This document shows positions 620 through 8,285 of a DNA stretch of 11,200 nt, piece after piece; position 1 is the first letter of the stretch, and every line of letters begins with the position of its first letter. The translations under genes were made by a program, and so were the position numbers. Under the pieces are notes generated by a model. It did no database searches. It was not told the origin of the DNA and worked only from the letters and a program-made list of their open reading frames with translations. Origin of the DNA: Bacillota bacterium (GTDB lineage Bacteria; Bacillota; Sulfobacillia; RBS10-35; JAJYVN01); assembly GCA_021827805.1 (NCBI GenBank), contig JAKAUG010000065.1, positions 1 through 11,200 of the forward strand, written 5' to 3'.

Positions 620-2332
<1,713 letters not shown>

Positions 2333-2338
2333 TCACCA

Positions 2339-2368
2339 AATGTACAGGCCTGGCGAAAGAAGCGTCAA
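2339..2368 (-). promoter_or_regulatory. Candidate sigma-A-type promoter of pyrG
   Basis: On the minus strand a -35 TTGACG (2363-2368, 5 of 6 matches) is separated by 18 nt from a -10 TACATT (2339-2344, 4 of 6). Predicted start is near 2332-2333, in a GGTGAAAC context. It lies between kamA and the leader terminator, so pyrG probably has its own transcript. No G-run is seen at the predicted start. Confidence 0.55.
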
Positions 2369-2431
2369 CCGTTCCGGCGCGGCAGAAGCAACCATCAGGA
2401 ACGGCGGGCGAGGCCGGGACCGGCCCCGCGC

Positions 2432-2458
2432 CCGGCGCGGCCCGTGGGGCCGCGCCGG
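2432..2458 (-). repeat. 12-bp GC palindrome downstream of kamA
   Basis: Perfect inverted repeat: CCGGCGCGGCCC (2432-2443), 3-nt loop, GGGCCGCGCCGG (2447-2458). It starts 18 nt past the kamA stop. The position suits a transcript 3' end, but no U-tract follows on either strand, so it could be an mRNA-stabilising hairpin or a factor-dependent terminator. Coding is excluded by its place between kamA and the pyrG promoter. Confidence 0.6.
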
Positions 2459-2475
2459 CTGAACCCTACGGCACC

Positions 2476-3888
2476 TTAGGACTCGGGCGTTCTGGGCTCC
2501 CCCCCCAGCGGTCGGGGAGGCGACACACTCAGCGCGTTCAGGGGGAACACGACCGACTCCGCCCCGTGTCCCGCGGGCCGGCTGGCGTTCGGCCCGGCAC
2601 TGCCCGAGACGCCGACGCCCTCCAGGGCGTGGGAGTGGCCGCCATGCCCGCGCTGCCGCCGCTCCAGGCCTGCGGGCTCCATCGCGGTCTGGTCTCCATA
2701 CAGGAGTTGCCCCAGTCCGCCGAGCTGGCTGTGGTCGGTGTGGCACAGCGGGCAGGGGTGGTCGTCCCGTGCCGGGTACTGCGGCTCGGGGTAGACCGTG
2801 ATCACACCCTCATAGTTGCGCAAGAGGGTGCGCTGCTCCCCCATGGCCAGCACGTAGTTCGGCGCCACCGGAATCTTGCCGCCGCCGCCGGGCGCATCCA
2901 CGACGAAGGTGGGTACGGCGAAACCCGTGGTGTGGCCCCGCAGCATCTCCAGGATCTCGATGCCCTTGCGGATGGGCGTCCGGAAGTGTGAGAGCCCGGG
3001 CGAGAGGTCGCACTGGTAGATGTAGTATGGTCGGACCCTGATCTTCAGGCATTCGTGCATGAGCCGTTTCATGACAACCGGACAGTCGTTCAGATCACGC
3101 AGCAGCACGACCTGGTTGCCCAGCGGCACCCCGGCGTCGGCCAGCAGTGCGCAGGCCCTCGCCGCCTCCGGGGTGATCTCCTTGGGATGGTTGAAGTGTG
3201 TGTTCATGTAAATCGGGTGGTAACGGCGCAGCATCTCCGCCAGGGCTGGCGTGATGCGCTGCGGGCACACGACGGGCATGCGCGTCCCCAGGCGGATGAT
3301 CTCCACATGGTCGATGGCCCGCAGCCGAGAGATGACGTACTCCAGCCATTCGTCCCCCACAAGCAACGCGTCCCCGCCGGAGATGAGGACATCGCGGACG
3401 GCGGGCGTGTCCCGGATGTAGGCGATGGCCCGATCGATCTGCGGCTTGGGTGCCGCGTGGCCGAACTCGCCGGTGAAGTGCCGGCGCGTGCAGTGCCTGC
3501 AGTACATCGAGCACATGTCGGTGATCAGGAACAGCACGCGGTCCGGGTAGCGGTGCGTGATCAGCGGGACAGGGGCATCCGCCTGCTCGTCCAGGGGATC
3601 CAGGCGTTCCTCGGGCGCCACGTTGAGCTCGTGCGATGTGGGAACCGCCAGACGCCGCACGGGACAGCTTGGGTCGCTCTGGTTCATGAGCAGGGCATAG
3701 TAGGGCGTGATGGACAGAGGAAAGTCGCTGGTGGCGCGCAGGATCCCCGCACGCTCCATCTCCGTGAGATCCACGACGCGGGCCACGTCGTCCAGGGTAC
3801 GGAGGCGGTGGGAAAGCTGCCACTTCCAGCTGCCCCACTGCTCCGGGGTGACATCTCGCCAAAGCGGGACGTCAGTATAGTGCCGCAC
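2476..3888 (-). CDS. kamA: L-lysine 2,3-aminomutase (radical SAM)
   Basis: Isomerises L-lysine to L-beta-lysine using a 4Fe-4S cluster, S-adenosylmethionine and PLP; 470 aa. Seen: radical-SAM CSMYCRHC with Cys126, Cys130, Cys133; IYQCDLS with Asp294 and VVDAPGGGGK with Asp331 and the PLP-binding Lys338, the residues that hold lysine and PLP in the clostridial enzyme. These residues, and its length, argue against the shorter EF-P enzyme EpmB. The zinc-site Cys269 is kept, but the terminal CxCxxC is reduced to HPCPLC (Cys379, Cys382). After LLYGDQTAMEPAGLER (about 410), where the clostridial enzyme nearly ends, there is a Gly/Ala/Pro-rich tail of about 60 residues without recognised domain. The start is GTG 3888 with GAGGAG 10 nt upstream. 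The gene has its own promoter and a long structured leader. No acetyltransferase (ablB) or 5,6-aminomutase is adjacent, so the fate of beta-lysine (osmolyte or degradation) is unclear. Confidence 0.93.
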   Translation of the reverse strand: MRHYTDVPLWRDVTPEQWGSWKWQLSHRLRTLDDVARVVDLTEMERAGILRATSDFPLSITPYYALLMNQSDPSCPVRRLAVPTSHELNVAPEERLDPLDEQADAPVPLITHRYPDRVLFLITDMCSMYCRHCTRRHFTGEFGHAAPKPQIDRAIAYIRDTPAVRDVLISGGDALLVGDEWLEYVISRLRAIDHVEIIRLGTRMPVVCPQRITPALAEMLRRYHPIYMNTHFNHPKEITPEAARACALLADAGVPLGNQVVLLRDLNDCPVVMKRLMHECLKIRVRPYYIYQCDLSPGLSHFRTPIRKGIEILEMLRGHTTGFAVPTFVVDAPGGGGKIPVAPNYVLAMGEQRTLLRNYEGVITVYPEPQYPARDDHPCPLCHTDHSQLGGLGQLLYGDQTAMEPAGLERRQRGHGGHSHALEGVGVSGSAGPNASRPAGHGAESVVFPLNALSVSPPRPLGGEPRTPES

Positions 3889-3898
3889 GGCGGCTCGT

Positions 3899-3904
3899 CT
3901 CCTC
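3899..3904 (-). promoter_or_regulatory. Shine-Dalgarno site of kamA
   Basis: GAGGAG on the minus strand, 10 nt before GTG 3888. It lies just outside the closing helix of the structured leader. The adjoining GGTCCT (3905-3910) is complementary to AGGACC (4155-4160) near the leader's 5' end. Confidence 0.7.
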
Positions 3905-3918
3905 AGGACCCTGTTTTT

Positions 3919-4175
3919 GCCGGAGCCTCCATCCGCAGTTCAAGCGGATGTAGGGAAGCAGTCGGCGCCATCGGCGCCCAGAACCCAGTGTGCGGGTTCG
4001 CCGTCACCGTCCAGGGGCGAAGTCCCCTGCCCCTTGCGGGCGGTGCGCGGCGGGCGGAACTCGGTCCGCCTCGCTTCCAAGACCGGCCTGGCGCCGGTCA
4101 CCCCGGCAGTACCGCTGGGGCGCCACTCCCTTGCAGGGATCCTGACCGGGGGGCGGTCCTCACCACGCTCCCGGC
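3919..4175 (-). ncRNA. Unidentified structured RNA / leader of kamA
   Basis: The 352-base gap between argS and kamA has no credible gene but an unusual run of inverted repeats. A closing helix pairs 4167-4175 (GCCGGGAGC) with 3919-3926 (GCTCCGGC), 8 bp with one bulged G; its 5' end coincides with the transcription start predicted from the promoter at 4182-4210. Inside, in transcription order, are stems 4144-4158 (5 bp), 4127-4139 (5 bp), 4101-4120 (interrupted), 4081-4099 (7 bp), 4053-4070 (6 bp), 4012-4029 (6 bp), 3981-3999 (6 bp), 3964-3978 (6 bp) and 3930-3950 (7 bp). A long-range helix GGAAGC (4073-4078) with GCTTCC (3954-3959) encloses the group 3964-4070. I found no conserved cores of lysine, cobalamin, glycine, TPP or SAM riboswitches, nor a T-box. 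A cis-regulatory leader is the simplest reading; a free small RNA is possible. Confidence 0.5.
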
Positions 4176-4181
4176 GCGCAC

Positions 4182-4210
4182 ATTATGTGACCGGTACGGG
4201 TGGTTGTCTA
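4182..4210 (-). promoter_or_regulatory. Sigma-A-type promoter upstream of kamA leader
   Basis: On the minus strand TAGACA (4205-4210, 5 of 6) and CATAAT (4182-4187, 5 of 6) are separated by exactly 17 nt. Predicted start is near 4175-4176, giving a leader of about 285 nt before kamA. This is the best promoter match in the window. Confidence 0.7.
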
Positions 4211-4240
4211 GCGAAAAATCCTGGCCCGCACACCCGCCCT

Positions 4241-5908
4241 TCACATGCTCTGCGGGGCGCTGACCCCCAGCAGACCCAGCACCCGCGCCAGCACGATCTG
4301 TGTCGCGGAGCAGAGGGCCAGGCGGGCACGGCTCTGCGCCGGTTCGCCCCCCAGCACGCGGCACTGGGCATAGAAGCCGTGAAAGCGCTCGGCCGTCTGG
4401 CGGGCATAGGCGGTGAGCCGGTGCGGTGCTCGGCTCGAGGCCGCGGCCGCGATTTCGTCGGGGAGGGCCGCCAGCGCGCGGAGCAGGGCCGTCTCCGCCG
4501 GATGCACCAGCGGCGCCGCATCCGCCTCAGCCACGAGCTCTCCGGCTTGCCGCAGAATGCTGCAGATGCGGGCGTGGGCATACTGGACGTAATACACCGG
4601 ATTGTCCTGGGACTGACGCTTGGCCAGCTCCACATCGAAATCCATGTGCGTATCGATCGTGCGCGTCAGGAAGAAGAAGCGGGCGGCATCGACCCCGACC
4701 TCGTCCAGGAAGTCCTCCATAGAAATGAAGTTGCCCGAGCGCTTGCTGATCTTCTCCTCACGCCCGTCGCGCAGCAGCCGGATCATCTGCGTCAGAAGGA
4801 CCTCCAGGTGGTCGACCGGGTAGCCGAGCCACTCCAGGGCCAGCCGGACCGCCTGCACCTCGCCGTGGTGGTCGTGCCCGTAGATGTCGATGAGCAGGTC
4901 GTAGCCGCGCTCGAACTTGCCCGCATGATAGGCGATGTCTGGCACCCGGTAGGTGTATTCCCCGTCCCGCTTGCGCAGAACACGGTCGTCGTTGTCCCCC
5001 GCCCCCTCGGTTTTCAGCCAGAGGGCGCCGTCTCGTTCCTCCGTGTATCCGCGGGCGCTGAGCTCCTCCACCACGCGCTCTGGGCCACGGGCGGCGCGGA
5101 TGTCCGACTCCAGGCTGAAATGGTCGAAATGCACGCCGAACCGCTCCAGAACCTCGCGCTGCCGCTGCAGGATGCGGTCCACCGCGTACCGCGCCAGCAT
5201 GGTGATGCGCCGCTCGGGCTCCTGCTCCAACACGTCCATGCCCCGCTCGTCGGCGTAGCGCGAGGCCATCGCCACCAGGTAGTCCCCTGGGTATCCCCCC
5301 TCTGGCACCTCGGCGGCCTCGCCGCGCAAGCGGCGCAGACGGGCCTCCAGGGACAGGCCGAGTTTGCGGAACTGGCCGCCGGCGTCGTTGACGTAGAACT
5401 CGGCCTCCGCGCGGTAGCCCGCCGCATTCAGGCAGCGCACCAGGGAATCGCCGAAGGCGGCGGCGCGGCAGTTGACGACGTTGAGCGGACCCGTCGGGTT
5501 CGCGGAAACGAACTCGACCAGCACACGCCGACCCTGGCCCATGGCCGAAGCCCCGTAGTCCAGGCCGGCGGCCAGGATCTCGCCCACCGCGGGGGCAAGC
5601 CAGCCGTCCCGAAAATAGATGTTGATGAACCCGGGGCCAGCCACCTCGGCCCGTTCGAGGACCGGGATCCTCTGGGGGGTCAGACCGGCCACGAGGGCCG
5701 CCGCCACCTGGCGCGGCCCCAGCCGCGTCCCCCGCGCCAGCTGCAGGGCCACGTTGGTGGCCAGATCGCCGTGCTGCTCGCTGCGCGGCTCCTCCAGAAC
5801 ACAGGGGGGAAAGGGTGCCTGCGGCAGCTCCCCCCGCTCGCTCGCATCCCGGTGCGCCTGCCGCAACGCCTCGCGGATCTGTGCCCGTCGCGCCTCCAGC
5901 AGATACAA
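4241..5908 (-). CDS. argS: Arginyl-tRNA synthetase
   Basis: Class I synthetase charging tRNA-Arg; cytosolic; 555 aa from the TTG at 5908, normal length. The N-terminal tRNA-recognition domain (about 1-100) has QHGDLATNVALQLA. The catalytic domain has VEFVSANPTGPL at 131-142, EFYVNDAGGQ at 170-179, IYGHDHHGE at 342-350 and KISKRSGN at 386-393. The C-terminal DALR anticodon-binding domain (about 436-555) starts at NPVYYVQYAHARICSI and ends LLGVSAPQSM. Odd: the HIGH signature, usually HVGH after PTGPL, reads NVVN (143-146), with both histidines replaced, although the rest is intact. The frame is open to 6016, but homology starts near the TTG, which has AGGAG 5 nt upstream; upstream residues look non-coding. 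It follows speB by 173 nt containing a possible structured leader, and precedes the kamA promoter. The identity is secure. Confidence 0.96.
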   Translation of the reverse strand: MYLLEARRAQIREALRQAHRDASERGELPQAPFPPCVLEEPRSEQHGDLATNVALQLARGTRLGPRQVAAALVAGLTPQRIPVLERAEVAGPGFINIYFRDGWLAPAVGEILAAGLDYGASAMGQGRRVLVEFVSANPTGPLNVVNCRAAAFGDSLVRCLNAAGYRAEAEFYVNDAGGQFRKLGLSLEARLRRLRGEAAEVPEGGYPGDYLVAMASRYADERGMDVLEQEPERRITMLARYAVDRILQRQREVLERFGVHFDHFSLESDIRAARGPERVVEELSARGYTEERDGALWLKTEGAGDNDDRVLRKRDGEYTYRVPDIAYHAGKFERGYDLLIDIYGHDHHGEVQAVRLALEWLGYPVDHLEVLLTQMIRLLRDGREEKISKRSGNFISMEDFLDEVGVDAARFFFLTRTIDTHMDFDVELAKRQSQDNPVYYVQYAHARICSILRQAGELVAEADAAPLVHPAETALLRALAALPDEIAAAASSRAPHRLTAYARQTAERFHGFYAQCRVLGGEPAQSRARLALCSATQIVLARVLGLLGVSAPQSM

Positions 5909-5913
5909 GAGGG

Positions 5914-5918
5914 CTCCT
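5914..5918 (-). promoter_or_regulatory. Shine-Dalgarno site deciding the argS TTG start
   Basis: AGGAG on the minus strand ends 5 nt before TTG 5908. It is the only good site near where ArgRS homology begins. The spacing is short but workable. Confidence 0.6.
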
Positions 5919-5966
5919 GGTCCACACGTGCACCGCCGCGCCGCCGCGGCGGCCGTCCGCCCGACC

Positions 5967-6056
5967 AGGATTCGGCTCCCTTCTGCCCGGTACTCGCCCG
6001 CGCGGGCGTTGGGCAAGTGGCGGACTTGCTACCTCAAGGCCTGTGACCGGAATCCT
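5967..6056 (-). repeat. Long-range inverted repeat in the speB-argS gap
   Basis: On the minus strand AGGATTCCGG (6047-6056) can pair with CCGAATCCT (5967-5975), 9 bp with one bulged C. It encloses a perfect 6-bp hairpin GCAAGT/ACTTGC (6013-6029, 5-nt loop). The 173-nt gap before argS may therefore be a structured leader. No T-box core and no intrinsic terminator were found. Downstream is a run of CGG-type repeats (about 5930-5960). Confidence 0.35.
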
Positions 6057-6081
6057 ACCACGCCGGGCTGAAGCTGGGCTG

Positions 6082-6924
6082 TCAGGGCAGCAGCAGGAGC
6101 TGGCGAACCACCTTGGCCCCCAACAGCGCGGTGATGCCTCCCGGATCGTAGGCGGGGGCCACCTCCACCACGTCCGCACCGACGATGGGCAGGCCCTGGA
6201 GACCGTCCACCACGGCGAGCAACTCGGCGGCCGTGGGCCCGCCCGGCTCTGGCGTGCCCGTGCCGGGGGCAAAGGCCGGATCCACGAAGTCGATGTCCAC
6301 GGTCACGTAAAGCGGGCCCCTCGCCAGTTCCTGGCGCCAGGCCTCGGGCAGCGCCGACGCGGCCGGGGCGAAGTTCGTCTGCCGCGCGAACTCCCACTCC
6401 TCGCGGGTCCCCGAGCGAATGCCCAACTGGTACAGCCCCGAGGGCCCCACCACCTCCGCCACGCGGCGCATGACCGTGGCGTGGGACCAGCGGCGACCCA
6501 TGTAGTCTTCGCGCAGATCCGCATGCGCATCCAGTTGCAGCACGCGCAGGCCGGCATGGCTCGGGGCCAGGATTCGCACGGCCGCCCAGCTAACCAGGTG
6601 CTCCCCGCCCAGCATCAGGGGACGCACGCCGCGCCGGTCGATCTCGGCGACCGTCGCCGCAATGTCCTCAAGGGACTGCTCCACATCCCCCGGAGGCAGA
6701 TCCAGATCTCCAAGGTCGCAGAAGGGTTGGTCGTCAAGTCCGACGCCGCGCGAGGGGCTCCAGTCCTCAAGCCCGGACGACGCCGCGCGGATCGCGGCCG
6801 GCCCGAAACGGCTTCCCGGCCGGAAGCTGGTGGTCGCATCCAGCGGCGCGCCGAAAAGCGCCCATTTCGCCCCCTCGGCCGGACGCGCACCCAGAAACGC
6901 CGCAGGCACCGGCCGCCCTGTCAT
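6082..6924 (-). CDS. speB: Agmatinase-family ureohydrolase (SpeB type)
   Basis: Binuclear-manganese ureohydrolase that releases urea from agmatine to give putrescine, or from N1-aminopropylagmatine to give spermidine. It is 280 aa, slightly short of the typical 290-310. Seen: LMLGGEHL with His109; LQLDAHADLRE with Asp132, His134 and Asp136; YVTVDIDFVDPAFAPGTGTP with Asp210 and Asp212. All six expected metal ligands are present. PEPGG at 225-229 completes the family signature. The ATG at 6924 overlaps the speE stop (ATGA), and GAGGA lies 9 nt upstream inside speE, so translation is probably coupled. Lying after pvlArgDC and speE, it belongs to a polyamine operon. Arginase or formimidoglutamase activity cannot be excluded from motifs alone, but the context favours an agmatine-type substrate. 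The same frame runs open through speE to 7749; that upstream part is out of frame with a real gene and is not coding. Confidence 0.92.
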   Translation of the reverse strand: MTGRPVPAAFLGARPAEGAKWALFGAPLDATTSFRPGSRFGPAAIRAASSGLEDWSPSRGVGLDDQPFCDLGDLDLPPGDVEQSLEDIAATVAEIDRRGVRPLMLGGEHLVSWAAVRILAPSHAGLRVLQLDAHADLREDYMGRRWSHATVMRRVAEVVGPSGLYQLGIRSGTREEWEFARQTNFAPAASALPEAWRQELARGPLYVTVDIDFVDPAFAPGTGTPEPGGPTAAELLAVVDGLQGLPIVGADVVEVAPAYDPGGITALLGAKVVRQLLLLP

Positions 6925-7757
6925 GACCTGGGGTCCTCGGCCAGGATCTGGCGAACAAAGGGAGGGAGGGCGAAGGCCGCGGCCTGCACCTCGGGGGACC
7001 AGTAGCGGGTCGAAAGCGCCGCGGGCTGCTCGGCCTCGAGCGGCGTGCCACGACTGGCGATGCTGAAGGTCCACATCGCCCCGGGGTAGGTCGGGATGAC
7101 CGCCCAGTACAGACCGACCCGTGAGAAGCTGCCTCGCAGTGCCGCCTGGACGGCCCGAATGAGCGGACCATGGAGGAACGGGCTCTCGGTCTGGGCGGCG
7201 AGGACCCCGCGCTCGCCGAGCACACGGGCGCAGTCCGCATAGAAGGGCGCGCCGAACAGACCCTCCGCGGGACCCAGCGGATCCGGGGCGTCCACCAGGA
7301 TCGCGTCGAAGGCTCCGGCCGGCAGTTGGGCCAGATAGGCGATGCCATCTCCCAGGCACACCTCGACCCTGGGATCGTCCAGGGCCCCGGCCAGGGAGGG
7401 CAGGTGCCGCCGGCACGCCTCCACGACGGCCCCATCCAGTTCGGCGAGCACCACGCGCTCCACGCTGGGATGGCGGAGGACCTCGCGCACCGCCCCCCCG
7501 TCGCCCCCGCCGACGACGAGGACGCGCCGGGGCCGCCCCAGGGCGCTGAGGGCCGGGTGGACGAGCATCTCGTGGTAAACGAATTCGTCCGCCTCGGTGG
7601 TCATGACCATGTCGTCCAGGGCCAGCAGGCGCCCGTACTGGGAGGTCTGGTAGACCGCCACCTCCTGGTAGGAACTGACCCGCCGCTCCAGCACCTGCTC
7701 GCAACGCAGGCCCAGACGCAGCCCCGGGGTCTGTTGCTCGGTCCACCACAAGTCCAC
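6921..7757 (-). CDS. speE: Spermidine synthase / aminopropyltransferase
   Basis: Transfers the aminopropyl group of decarboxylated S-adenosylmethionine to putrescine (or, in some thermophiles, to agmatine); cytosolic; 278 aa, typical. The N-terminal beta domain (about 1-60) has SSYQEVAVYQTSQYGRLLAL. The Rossmann domain has LDDMVMTTEADEFVYHEM at 47-64, VLVVGGGDGGAVREVLRH at 79-96, LAELDGAVVE at 104-113 and LVDAPDPLGPAEGLF at 154-168, which carry the usual nucleotide- and amine-binding acidic residues. The start is GTG 7757 with a strong AGGTGAT Shine-Dalgarno (7764-7770) 6 nt upstream. It is 69 nt after pvlArgDC and overlaps speB by 4 nt. No S-adenosylmethionine decarboxylase gene is in view, so its co-substrate must come from elsewhere. 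Acceptor specificity (putrescine or agmatine) cannot be decided here. Confidence 0.94.
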   Translation of the reverse strand: MDLWWTEQQTPGLRLGLRCEQVLERRVSSYQEVAVYQTSQYGRLLALDDMVMTTEADEFVYHEMLVHPALSALGRPRRVLVVGGGDGGAVREVLRHPSVERVVLAELDGAVVEACRRHLPSLAGALDDPRVEVCLGDGIAYLAQLPAGAFDAILVDAPDPLGPAEGLFGAPFYADCARVLGERGVLAAQTESPFLHGPLIRAVQAALRGSFSRVGLYWAVIPTYPGAMWTFSIASRGTPLEAEQPAALSTRYWSPEVQAAAFALPPFVRQILAEDPRS

Positions 7758-7763
7758 GAGAAC

Positions 7764-7770
7764 ATCACCT
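7764..7770 (-). promoter_or_regulatory. Shine-Dalgarno site of speE
   Basis: AGGTGAT, an extended match to the 16S tail, 6 nt before GTG 7757; it decides the non-ATG start. Confidence 0.75.
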
Positions 7771-7797
7771 GACCGATGAGGGGATGAAGAGCGGGAC

Positions 7798-7825
7798 GGT
7801 CCGCCGGACCCGGGGCGCGCCCCGG
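7798..7825 (-). repeat. Two adjacent hairpins in the pvlArgDC-speE gap
   Basis: Immediately after the pvlArgDC stop lies the perfect 16-base palindrome CCGGGGCGCGCCCCGG (7810-7825; 6-bp stem, 4-nt loop). A second hairpin, GGTCC/GGACC with a 3-nt loop (7798-7810), shares base 7810 with it. No T-run follows, so this is not a simple terminator. It may mark mRNA processing, stabilisation or partial termination within the operon. Confidence 0.55.
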
Positions 7826-7826
7826 C

Positions 7827-8285
7827 TCAGTACCACATGACAGCGGCGGCGAGCGCCGCGCCCTGGCGCTCCACGCGATGCGCCACAGCCTCCACGCGCA
7901 GGTCGTGCAGGCGCTTGCCCCGGGCCACAAAGGCCTCGCGGACCATGTCGGCGACCTTGGCGGCCGCCTCGTCCCGGGTGCAATAGCCGTCGAACTCCAT
8001 GATCACCCCGTAGTCATCCTCGGAGAATCCGACGCCGATGGCGGCGGCGATCTCCCGGCCCGGCTCGTCCGAAACCAGGTAGCCGTACGCGGTGGGGGTG
8101 AGGGAACCCGGCGGCACGCTGAAGTTCGGCTCGTGCACGCAGCCGGGCGGAAGGATGCTGCTCACACGAATGAGATTCAGGTTGCCGATGCCGGCGGCCA
8201 AAAGCGCGTTGTCAAAGGCGTTGAGCGGGCTTGGGCCTTCGGATGCGCCCGCAACCAACTTGACCTTGCGCGGGGTGGGCAGCAT
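7827..8285 (-). CDS. Pyruvoyl-dependent arginine decarboxylase
   Basis: Decarboxylates arginine to agmatine, using a pyruvoyl group made by self-cleavage rather than PLP. The 152-aa proenzyme matches the small archaeal and bacterial PvlArgDC family. Seen: GNLNLIRVSSILPPG with the Ser42-Ser43 pair, the expected cleavage point, so a beta chain of about 42 residues and an alpha chain of about 110 starting with pyruvate. Also seen are the downstream GVGFSEDDYGVIMEFDGY with Glu97, the likely counterpart of the catalytic glutamate, and the terminal AAAVMWY. The start is ATG 8285 with GGAGG 7 nt upstream. It is the first gene of the pvlArgDC-speE-speB group and has a good promoter (8328-8356). It diverges from the PBP gene. 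The family is common in Archaea and patchy in Bacteria, so old horizontal transfer is possible, but base composition matches the neighbours. Related histidine decarboxylases are less likely in this context. Confidence 0.93.
   Translation of the reverse strand: MLPTPRKVKLVAGASEGPSPLNAFDNALLAAGIGNLNLIRVSSILPPGCVHEPNFSVPPGSLTPTAYGYLVSDEPGREIAAAIGVGFSEDDYGVIMEFDGYCTRDEAAAKVADMVREAFVARGKRLHDLRVEAVAHRVERQGAALAAAVMWY

What the first reader, a model, noticed from the sequence alone, without database searches (positions are those of the whole stretch)
3889..4240. Unidentified multi-hairpin RNA between a strong promoter and kamA
Seen directly: the 352-base gap holds a TAGACA-17 nt-CATAAT promoter. From the predicted start (about 4175) there are nine successive hairpins with arms of 4-7 bp, a long-range helix (4073-4078 with 3954-3959) enclosing four of them, and a closing helix (4167-4175 with 3919-3926) whose 5' end coincides with the predicted transcription start. 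This looks like a compact RNA of about 257 nt, larger than most riboswitches, with a multi-way junction and a nested second domain. Its place in front of lysine 2,3-aminomutase suggests a cis-regulator, perhaps sensing lysine, beta-lysine, SAM or osmotic state, but I could not find the conserved cores of known lysine, glycine, cobalamin, TPP or SAM riboswitches. It could be a new riboswitch class or a stand-alone small RNA. GC-rich DNA makes chance hairpins common, so conservation is the key test.
Basis: partly seen in the sequence, partly recalled or inferred. Interest (0 to 1): 0.72.

Follow-up and report, generated by a model that had tools for sequence, protein, structure and literature searches.

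The report
Structured RNA leader before kamA gene
Between its promoter and the gene for lysine 2,3-aminomutase, this uncultured bacterium carries an unusually well-folding leader, part of which is conserved in one related genome and matches no catalogued RNA family, so it is a plausible but unproven new regulatory RNA.

Summary
The observation mostly holds. The 352-nt argS–kamA gap has one sigma-70-like promoter on the kamA strand (4210-4182) and no terminator-like site. The leader folds better than shuffled sequence (z -2.91), below all 38 window tiles tested.

The new evidence is conservation. A 99-nt core (4144-4046) recurs between promoter and kamA in one other genome of the same family (G005): 74% identity over 86 columns, against 46% at four-fold sites of kamA. 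Covariance models gave no convincing third member. Four other kamA leaders of the order keep the promoter but lack the core. Rfam gives nothing. With two sequences, covariation is inconclusive.

Best reading: a domain of a cis-acting leader of kamA, an orphan riboswitch candidate of very narrow distribution, signal unknown. All six kamA genes read in the order also place the start codon in a hairpin, kept through a compensatory change: a likely output site. Precedent: Na+ and c-di-AMP riboswitches control this gene in Dehalobacter; this RNA matches neither family.

The parts
4182..4210 (-). sigma-70-like promoter, TAGACA-17-CATAAT
   Evidence: only promoter-like site in 3850-4300, 10 of 12 matches. 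A like pair of boxes with the same 17-nt spacing lies before kamA in 6 of 6 genomes of the order that were read
4046..4144 (-). conserved 99-nt core of the leader; the BLAST match to G005 covers 4132-4048
   Evidence: 74% identity over 86 columns with G005, upstream of its kamA
4120..4132 (-). longest invariant run, AAGGGAGUGGCGC
4081..4099 (-). hairpin P3 (GACCGGC / GCCGGUC), its inner pairs kept in G005
4073..4078 (-). invariant GGAAGC; in G000 predicted to pair with GCUUCC at 3959-3954
   Evidence: pair probabilities 0.97-1.00. No full GCUUCC partner seen in the G005 leader by eye
4053..4070 (-). hairpin P4 (GGCGGA / UCCGCC), kept in G005 with one two-sided change (G-C to A-U)
4101..4107 (-). 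5' strand of a predicted long-range helix (GCCGGGG)
   Evidence: probability 0.99 with 3925-3919. G005 has GCUGGGA and UCCCAGC, but that helix has probability 0.0 in G005
3919..3925 (-). 3' strand of the predicted long-range helix (CUCCGGC)
3899..3904 (-). Shine-Dalgarno-like GAGGAG
   Evidence: read by eye
3882..3894 (-). hairpin GCCGC-CGU-GCGGC with the kamA GTG start codon in and beside its loop
   Evidence: a start-codon hairpin of 5 or more pairs in 6 of 6 kamA genes of the order; shuffles reach 5 pairs in 9-16%
2476..3888 (-). kamA, lysine 2,3-aminomutase
   Evidence: TIGR03820, 564.7 bits, cut-off 525.4

Best explanation
The stretch is the 5' untranslated leader of kamA. A promoter at 4210-4182 would start an RNA of about 285 nt that runs without a terminator into kamA. 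The conserved core folds as hairpins (H1, P3, P4) around the invariant AAGGGAGUGGCGC and GGAAGCG strands. I infer that this domain senses a signal in cis, most likely a metabolite or ion linked to lysine, beta-lysine, polyamines or osmotic state, and changes access to the ribosome site, where the start codon sits in a hairpin. Shown by computation: promoter match, no terminator-like site, fold stronger than background, core conserved in the same place in a second genome, start-codon hairpin in all six kamA genes read in the order. Inferred: that it acts as RNA, that it switches, that control is translational, and the kind of signal.
For: Promoter and no terminator-like site; promoter with the same spacing before 6 of 6 kamA genes of the order. 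Fold z -2.91, lowest against 38 tiles. Core conserved between promoter and kamA of G005; local alignment of the two leaders scores 77 against 36.1, sd 5.34, 0 of 500 shuffles as high. Core identity 74% while four-fold sites of kamA are 46% identical (204 sites; random third-base expectation 34%), which points to selection. Chosen pairs of H1, P3 and P4 form in 15 of 16 cases in G000 and 16 of 16 in G005, though I chose them with both sequences in view. Alifold energy better than column shuffles: z -1.93 (17 of 500 as good), -2.22 with a hand alignment that favours pairing (14 of 500). Start-codon hairpin in 6 of 6 kamA genes of the order, chance 9-16% each. kamA is riboswitch-controlled elsewhere: PMC9337991, passages.
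Against: Two members only: no convincing match in the other 152 of 154 class genomes or the other 397 of 398 sampled phylum genomes, and four sister kamA leaders do without it. Covariation not significant: P 0.07 at best, 0.28, 0.52 and 0.85 in the other settings; the covariance term is no better than shuffles (394 and 363 of 500 as good). The G005 leader folds less strikingly: z -1.86, -1.29, -0.79 for its first 288 nt. Core alone z -1.66 and -0.91. The long-range helix of G000 is not favoured in G005, and a 7-bp complement arises in about 55% of shuffled tails. No switch was seen in silico: in the predicted fold most bases of the Shine-Dalgarno are paired, and barring 4107-4101 from pairing leaves that unchanged. 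Pieces around the ribosome site fold no better than shuffles (z 1.14, -1.16, -1.07). The opposite strand folds as well. By BLAST score alone the G005-to-G000 match is like two unrelated matches elsewhere; its weight comes from position.
Confidence: 0.48

Rival explanations
1. The core is a DNA element, such as a cluster of binding sites for a regulator of kamA transcription, and the hairpins are a by-product of GC-rich palindromic sequence.
For: Covariation not significant; both strands fold equally well; the core alone folds only modestly.
Against: In G000 the core starts about 30 nt downstream of the inferred start and is about 85-99 nt long, longer than usual operators (recalled). Changes within the chosen hairpins mostly keep pairing.
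Confidence: 0.21
2. A divergent member of a known riboswitch or RNA class that the Rfam models miss, for example lysine, Na+-I, c-di-AMP or T-box.
For: kamA is under Na+-I and c-di-AMP riboswitches in Dehalobacter (PMC9337991, passages); a lysine sensor would make sense for this enzyme.
Against: No such family among matches with E up to 10 in either leader; RF03071 in 0 of 61 genomes.
Confidence: 0.08
3. A stand-alone small RNA gene that happens to lie between argS and kamA.
For: Own promoter and strong fold; in G005 the matched core lies about 295 nt from kamA.
Against: No terminator-like site before kamA in G000 (G005 was not scanned). The promoter is also present before the four kamA genes that lack the core, so it looks like the kamA promoter.
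Confidence: 0.1
4. A relic: ancestral leader sequence shared by two genomes, with no function now.
For: Absent from four sister leaders; leaders here differ much in length (108 to 467 nt from the -10 box).
Against: Core identity is far above that of four-fold sites, while the parts outside the core show no significant similarity of their own (3' part 118 of 500, 5' part 262 of 500 shuffles as good).
Confidence: 0.13

Closest known systems
[quoted passage not shown] CF (PMC9337991, passages)
   Same: Structured leader of the same gene family; would give control of beta-lysine synthesis
   Different: No match to RF03071 in G000 or 60 relatives; no terminator-like site here, whereas that system works through terminators
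Lysine riboswitch (L box; accession RF00168 recalled)
   Same: Leader RNA of lysine-related genes with a multi-helix junction (recalled)
   Different: Not among matches with E up to 10 in either leader
Orphan riboswitch candidates from long GC-rich intergenic regions (PMC11109978, PMC8632094, PMC8723152; seen only as a search listing with the start of the abstracts)
   Same: GC-rich structured intergenic RNA before a metabolic gene, no known ligand
   Different: Such candidates usually rest on many homologues (recalled); this one has two

Membership tests
Na+-I riboswitch (RF03071) | match to the covariance model | tested here: not met
   0 of 61 genomes
Lysine riboswitch (RF00168, accession recalled) | match to the covariance model | tested here: not met
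   not among matches with E up to 10
T-box leader (RF00230, accession recalled) | match to the covariance model | tested here: not met
6S RNA (RF00013) | match to the covariance model | tested here: not met
   no match at E <= 0.001 anywhere in the incomplete own genome
Orphan riboswitch candidate | lies between a promoter and a metabolic gene, with no terminator before the gene | tested here: met
   the start site itself is inferred
Orphan riboswitch candidate | conserved sequence in homologous leaders | tested here: met
   in one other genome only
Orphan riboswitch candidate | covarying helices | tested here: inconclusive
Orphan riboswitch candidate | several independent members | tested here: not met
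   two genomes
Riboswitch | direct ligand binding that changes expression | not testable with these tools
   needs probing and reporter assays

The most novel reading that the evidence does not exclude
A new riboswitch class, so far seen in one family of uncultured Bacillota, whose core around the invariant AAGGGAGUGGCGC and GGAAGCG strands senses a metabolite or ion and sets translation of lysine 2,3-aminomutase through a start-codon hairpin.
Probability: 0.2. Interest if true: 0.65.

Novelty: new member of a known kind. Interest (0 to 1): 0.4.

Why it matters
If it is a sensor, it would be a further RNA control of beta-lysine synthesis beside the Na+-I and c-di-AMP pair of Dehalobacter, in a different lineage and with a different fold. 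It would also show that rare RNA classes can lie within single uncultured families, where covariation searches lack sequences. The start-codon hairpin, kept through a compensatory change, gives a directly testable hypothesis of translational control of kamA in this order.

Tried and rejected
Known RNA family: rejected (for five relatives' loci at gathering thresholds). Repeat or mobile element: the gap has one match, itself, in its own incomplete genome; 4150-4040 has no match in plasmids or phages; two viral contigs matched an exact pattern, but neither scores with the model and both matches lie inside ORFs. tRNA or tmRNA: none in the window. Weak matches elsewhere: G079 lies inside a 486-aa regulator-like ORF; G056 and G077 share only the pattern letters with the core, by eye; L135 and L144 overlap long ORFs; the other matches have E of 0.11 or more and were not followed. 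Short coding gene in the core: rejected by eye, because two 1-nt gaps break frame; no coding test was run. Conserved 3' half: not significant (118 of 500 shuffles as good; 34 of 500 for the last 110 nt of G000 against the last 160 nt of G005 with looser scoring). Structure conservation from two sequences: inconclusive. Switch between the long-range helix and the ribosome site: not seen in silico. AblB partner in the own genome: only a sub-threshold hit (27.2 bits against a cut-off of 205.1).

Full report
Setting. The window holds part of murA, a PBP1A-type gene, pdaD, speE, speB, argS, kamA and pyrG; pdaD to pyrG run on the minus strand. The finding concerns the 352 nt between argS and kamA. 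The window is one whole contig of an incomplete genome (G000: 502 contigs, 81.89% complete).

Observation. One sigma-70-like promoter (TAGACA-17-CATAAT, 4210-4182) and no terminator-like site were found. The 292-nt leader folds at -157.7 kcal/mol, z -2.91, 1 of 200 shuffles as good. Against 38 tiles of the window on the same strand (mean z -0.17, sd 0.98) it is lowest; two tiles overlap it (-2.77 and -1.21) and the lowest other tile is -1.64. The opposite strand gives z -3.48, so the fold does not choose the strand.

Homologue. A DNA search of 61 genomes gave matches at E <= 0.001 in six, G000 included. Of the other five, only G005 has its match before kamA: C43:36144-36226, about 295 nt upstream of its kamA start, downstream of a like promoter. 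G005's contig has the same length (36,446) as JAJZMB010000063.1 of MAG MAS3.bin161, labelled Bacillota bacterium, whose copy of the core gives the same model score; I take them as the same. The local alignment of the two leaders scores 77 against 36.1, sd 5.34, in 500 shuffles, none as high; it covers G000 from about 4171 to 4048, but the part 5' of AAGGGAG and the part 3' of the core are not significant alone (262 and 118 of 500 shuffles as good). Core identity is 74.4% over 86 columns with 4 gap letters, while kamA four-fold sites are 46.1% identical (204 sites; random third-base expectation 34%). This points to selection on the core. In the reciprocal search of 154 genomes with the G005 leader, four matched, G005 included; G000's place was again the kamA leader, but two unrelated genomes had matches of like E-value. 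Position, not score, carries the case.

Distribution. An exact pattern search in 154 class genomes gave four genomes, of which only G000 and G005 resemble the core. Model R1 in the same 154 gave G000, G005 and one match at E 0.092 in G079, inside a regulator-like ORF. In 398 genomes drawn evenly from the phylum only G000 matched. G005 was either not drawn or missed: 377 rows were not listed, and only up to 10 candidates per genome were scored, with strict filters, so that search is not exhaustive. In the 13 genomes of the order, with up to 150 candidates scored each, the next best E was 0.296 with R1 and 0.0554 with R2, neither convincing. Among 70 sources held locally only the window and the G005 locus (as L042 and L047) scored below E 1. 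Four other kamA leaders of the order have the promoter with the same 17-nt spacing; from the -10 box to the start codon they measure 125, 108, 215 and 120 nt in G001, G004, G009 and G012, against 293 in G000 and 467 in G005. They show no core and unremarkable folds (z -0.42, 0.15, -1.2 and 1.09).

Structure. Of 16 pairs that I chose for H1, P3 and P4 with both sequences in view, 15 form in G000 and 16 in G005. P4 has one two-sided change (G-C to A-U). Alifold on the two sequences is somewhat better than column shuffles (z -1.93, 17 of 500 as good; -2.22 and 14 of 500 with a hand alignment that favours pairing), but the covariance term is not (394 and 363 of 500 as good). With each genome's own fold as reference, pair retention in the other gave P 0.07 (hand alignment, G000 fold), 0.28, 0.52 and 0.85. 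The core alone gives z -1.66 in G000 and -0.91 in G005; the G005 leader gives -1.86, -1.29 and -0.79 for its first 288 nt. All this is inconclusive. A complement like the G000 helix 4107-4101 / 3925-3919 exists in G005 (GCUGGGA / UCCCAGC), with two two-sided changes if homologous, but a 7-bp complement occurs in about 55% of shuffled tails, and within the last 75 nt in 24% and 15%. Forcing it costs 7.5 kcal/mol in G005, where its probability is 0.0.

Output. In the predicted G000 fold with the first bases of kamA, most Shine-Dalgarno bases are paired, and barring 4107-4101 from pairing does not change that; so no switch can be read from these predictions. In 6 of 6 kamA genes of the order the start codon lies in and beside the loop of a hairpin: GCCGC/GCGGC in G000, G005, G001 and G004, and 11 pairs including G-U in G009 and G012, which share a genus and the same letters there. 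The second codon changes from CGG to AGG, both Arg, and the 5' arm changes with it. Shuffled flanks reach 5 pairs in 9-16% of cases for each gene and 11 pairs in at most 0.025%; 67 of 345 ATG/GTG triplets on the minus strand of the window reach 5. Of 10 kamA genes outside the order whose alignment starts at residue 1, one (G042, 7 pairs) reaches 5; of the 14, three do, but several of those starts are uncertain. This suggests, without proving it, translational control of kamA across the order, with or without the core.

Known families and print. Rfam has nothing at gathering thresholds in the window or in five relatives' loci; with E up to 10 the best are chance-like (E 4.3 and above in G000, 0.86 and 2.1 in G005). 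Searches of the held open library for kamA with leader and riboswitch and lysine aminomutase with riboswitch gave no paper; [quoted passage not shown] CF and are linked there to osmoprotection. RF03071 is in 0 of 61 genomes here. Absence from print is thus shown only for those searches.

Verdict. A conserved, probably structured element in the kamA leader, seen in two genomes; best read as a cis-acting RNA of unknown signal. It is an orphan candidate, not a demonstrated riboswitch.

Noticed in passing
window 3882-3894 (minus); L009, L010, L011, L012, L046 at the kamA start: The kamA start codon sits in and beside a hairpin loop in 6 of 6 genes of the order, with a compensatory change (CGG to AGG codon matched by the 5' arm) in G009 and G012, where it has 11 pairs including G-U.
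   Followed up: partly
L012 and L046 (G009 and G012), kamA leader: Two genomes of one genus differ by about 95 nt (215 against 120 nt from the -10 box to the start codon), as one stretch inserted or lost.
   Followed up: no
L043, L045, L046: argS and kamA are about 150 nt apart in G004 and 352 nt in G000, but 1.8-2.3 kb apart in G001, G009 and G012; what lies between was not identified.
   Followed up: no
window 620-8285 (minus): Arginine decarboxylase, spermidine synthase, agmatinase, argS, kamA and pyrG form one gene row, the same in G004, which suggests an arginine-polyamine-lysine theme.
   Followed up: partly
G000:C59:5066-5293: No clear beta-lysine acetyltransferase (AblB) in the incomplete own genome: best 27.2 bits against a cut-off of 205.1, so the fate of beta-lysine is open.
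   Followed up: no
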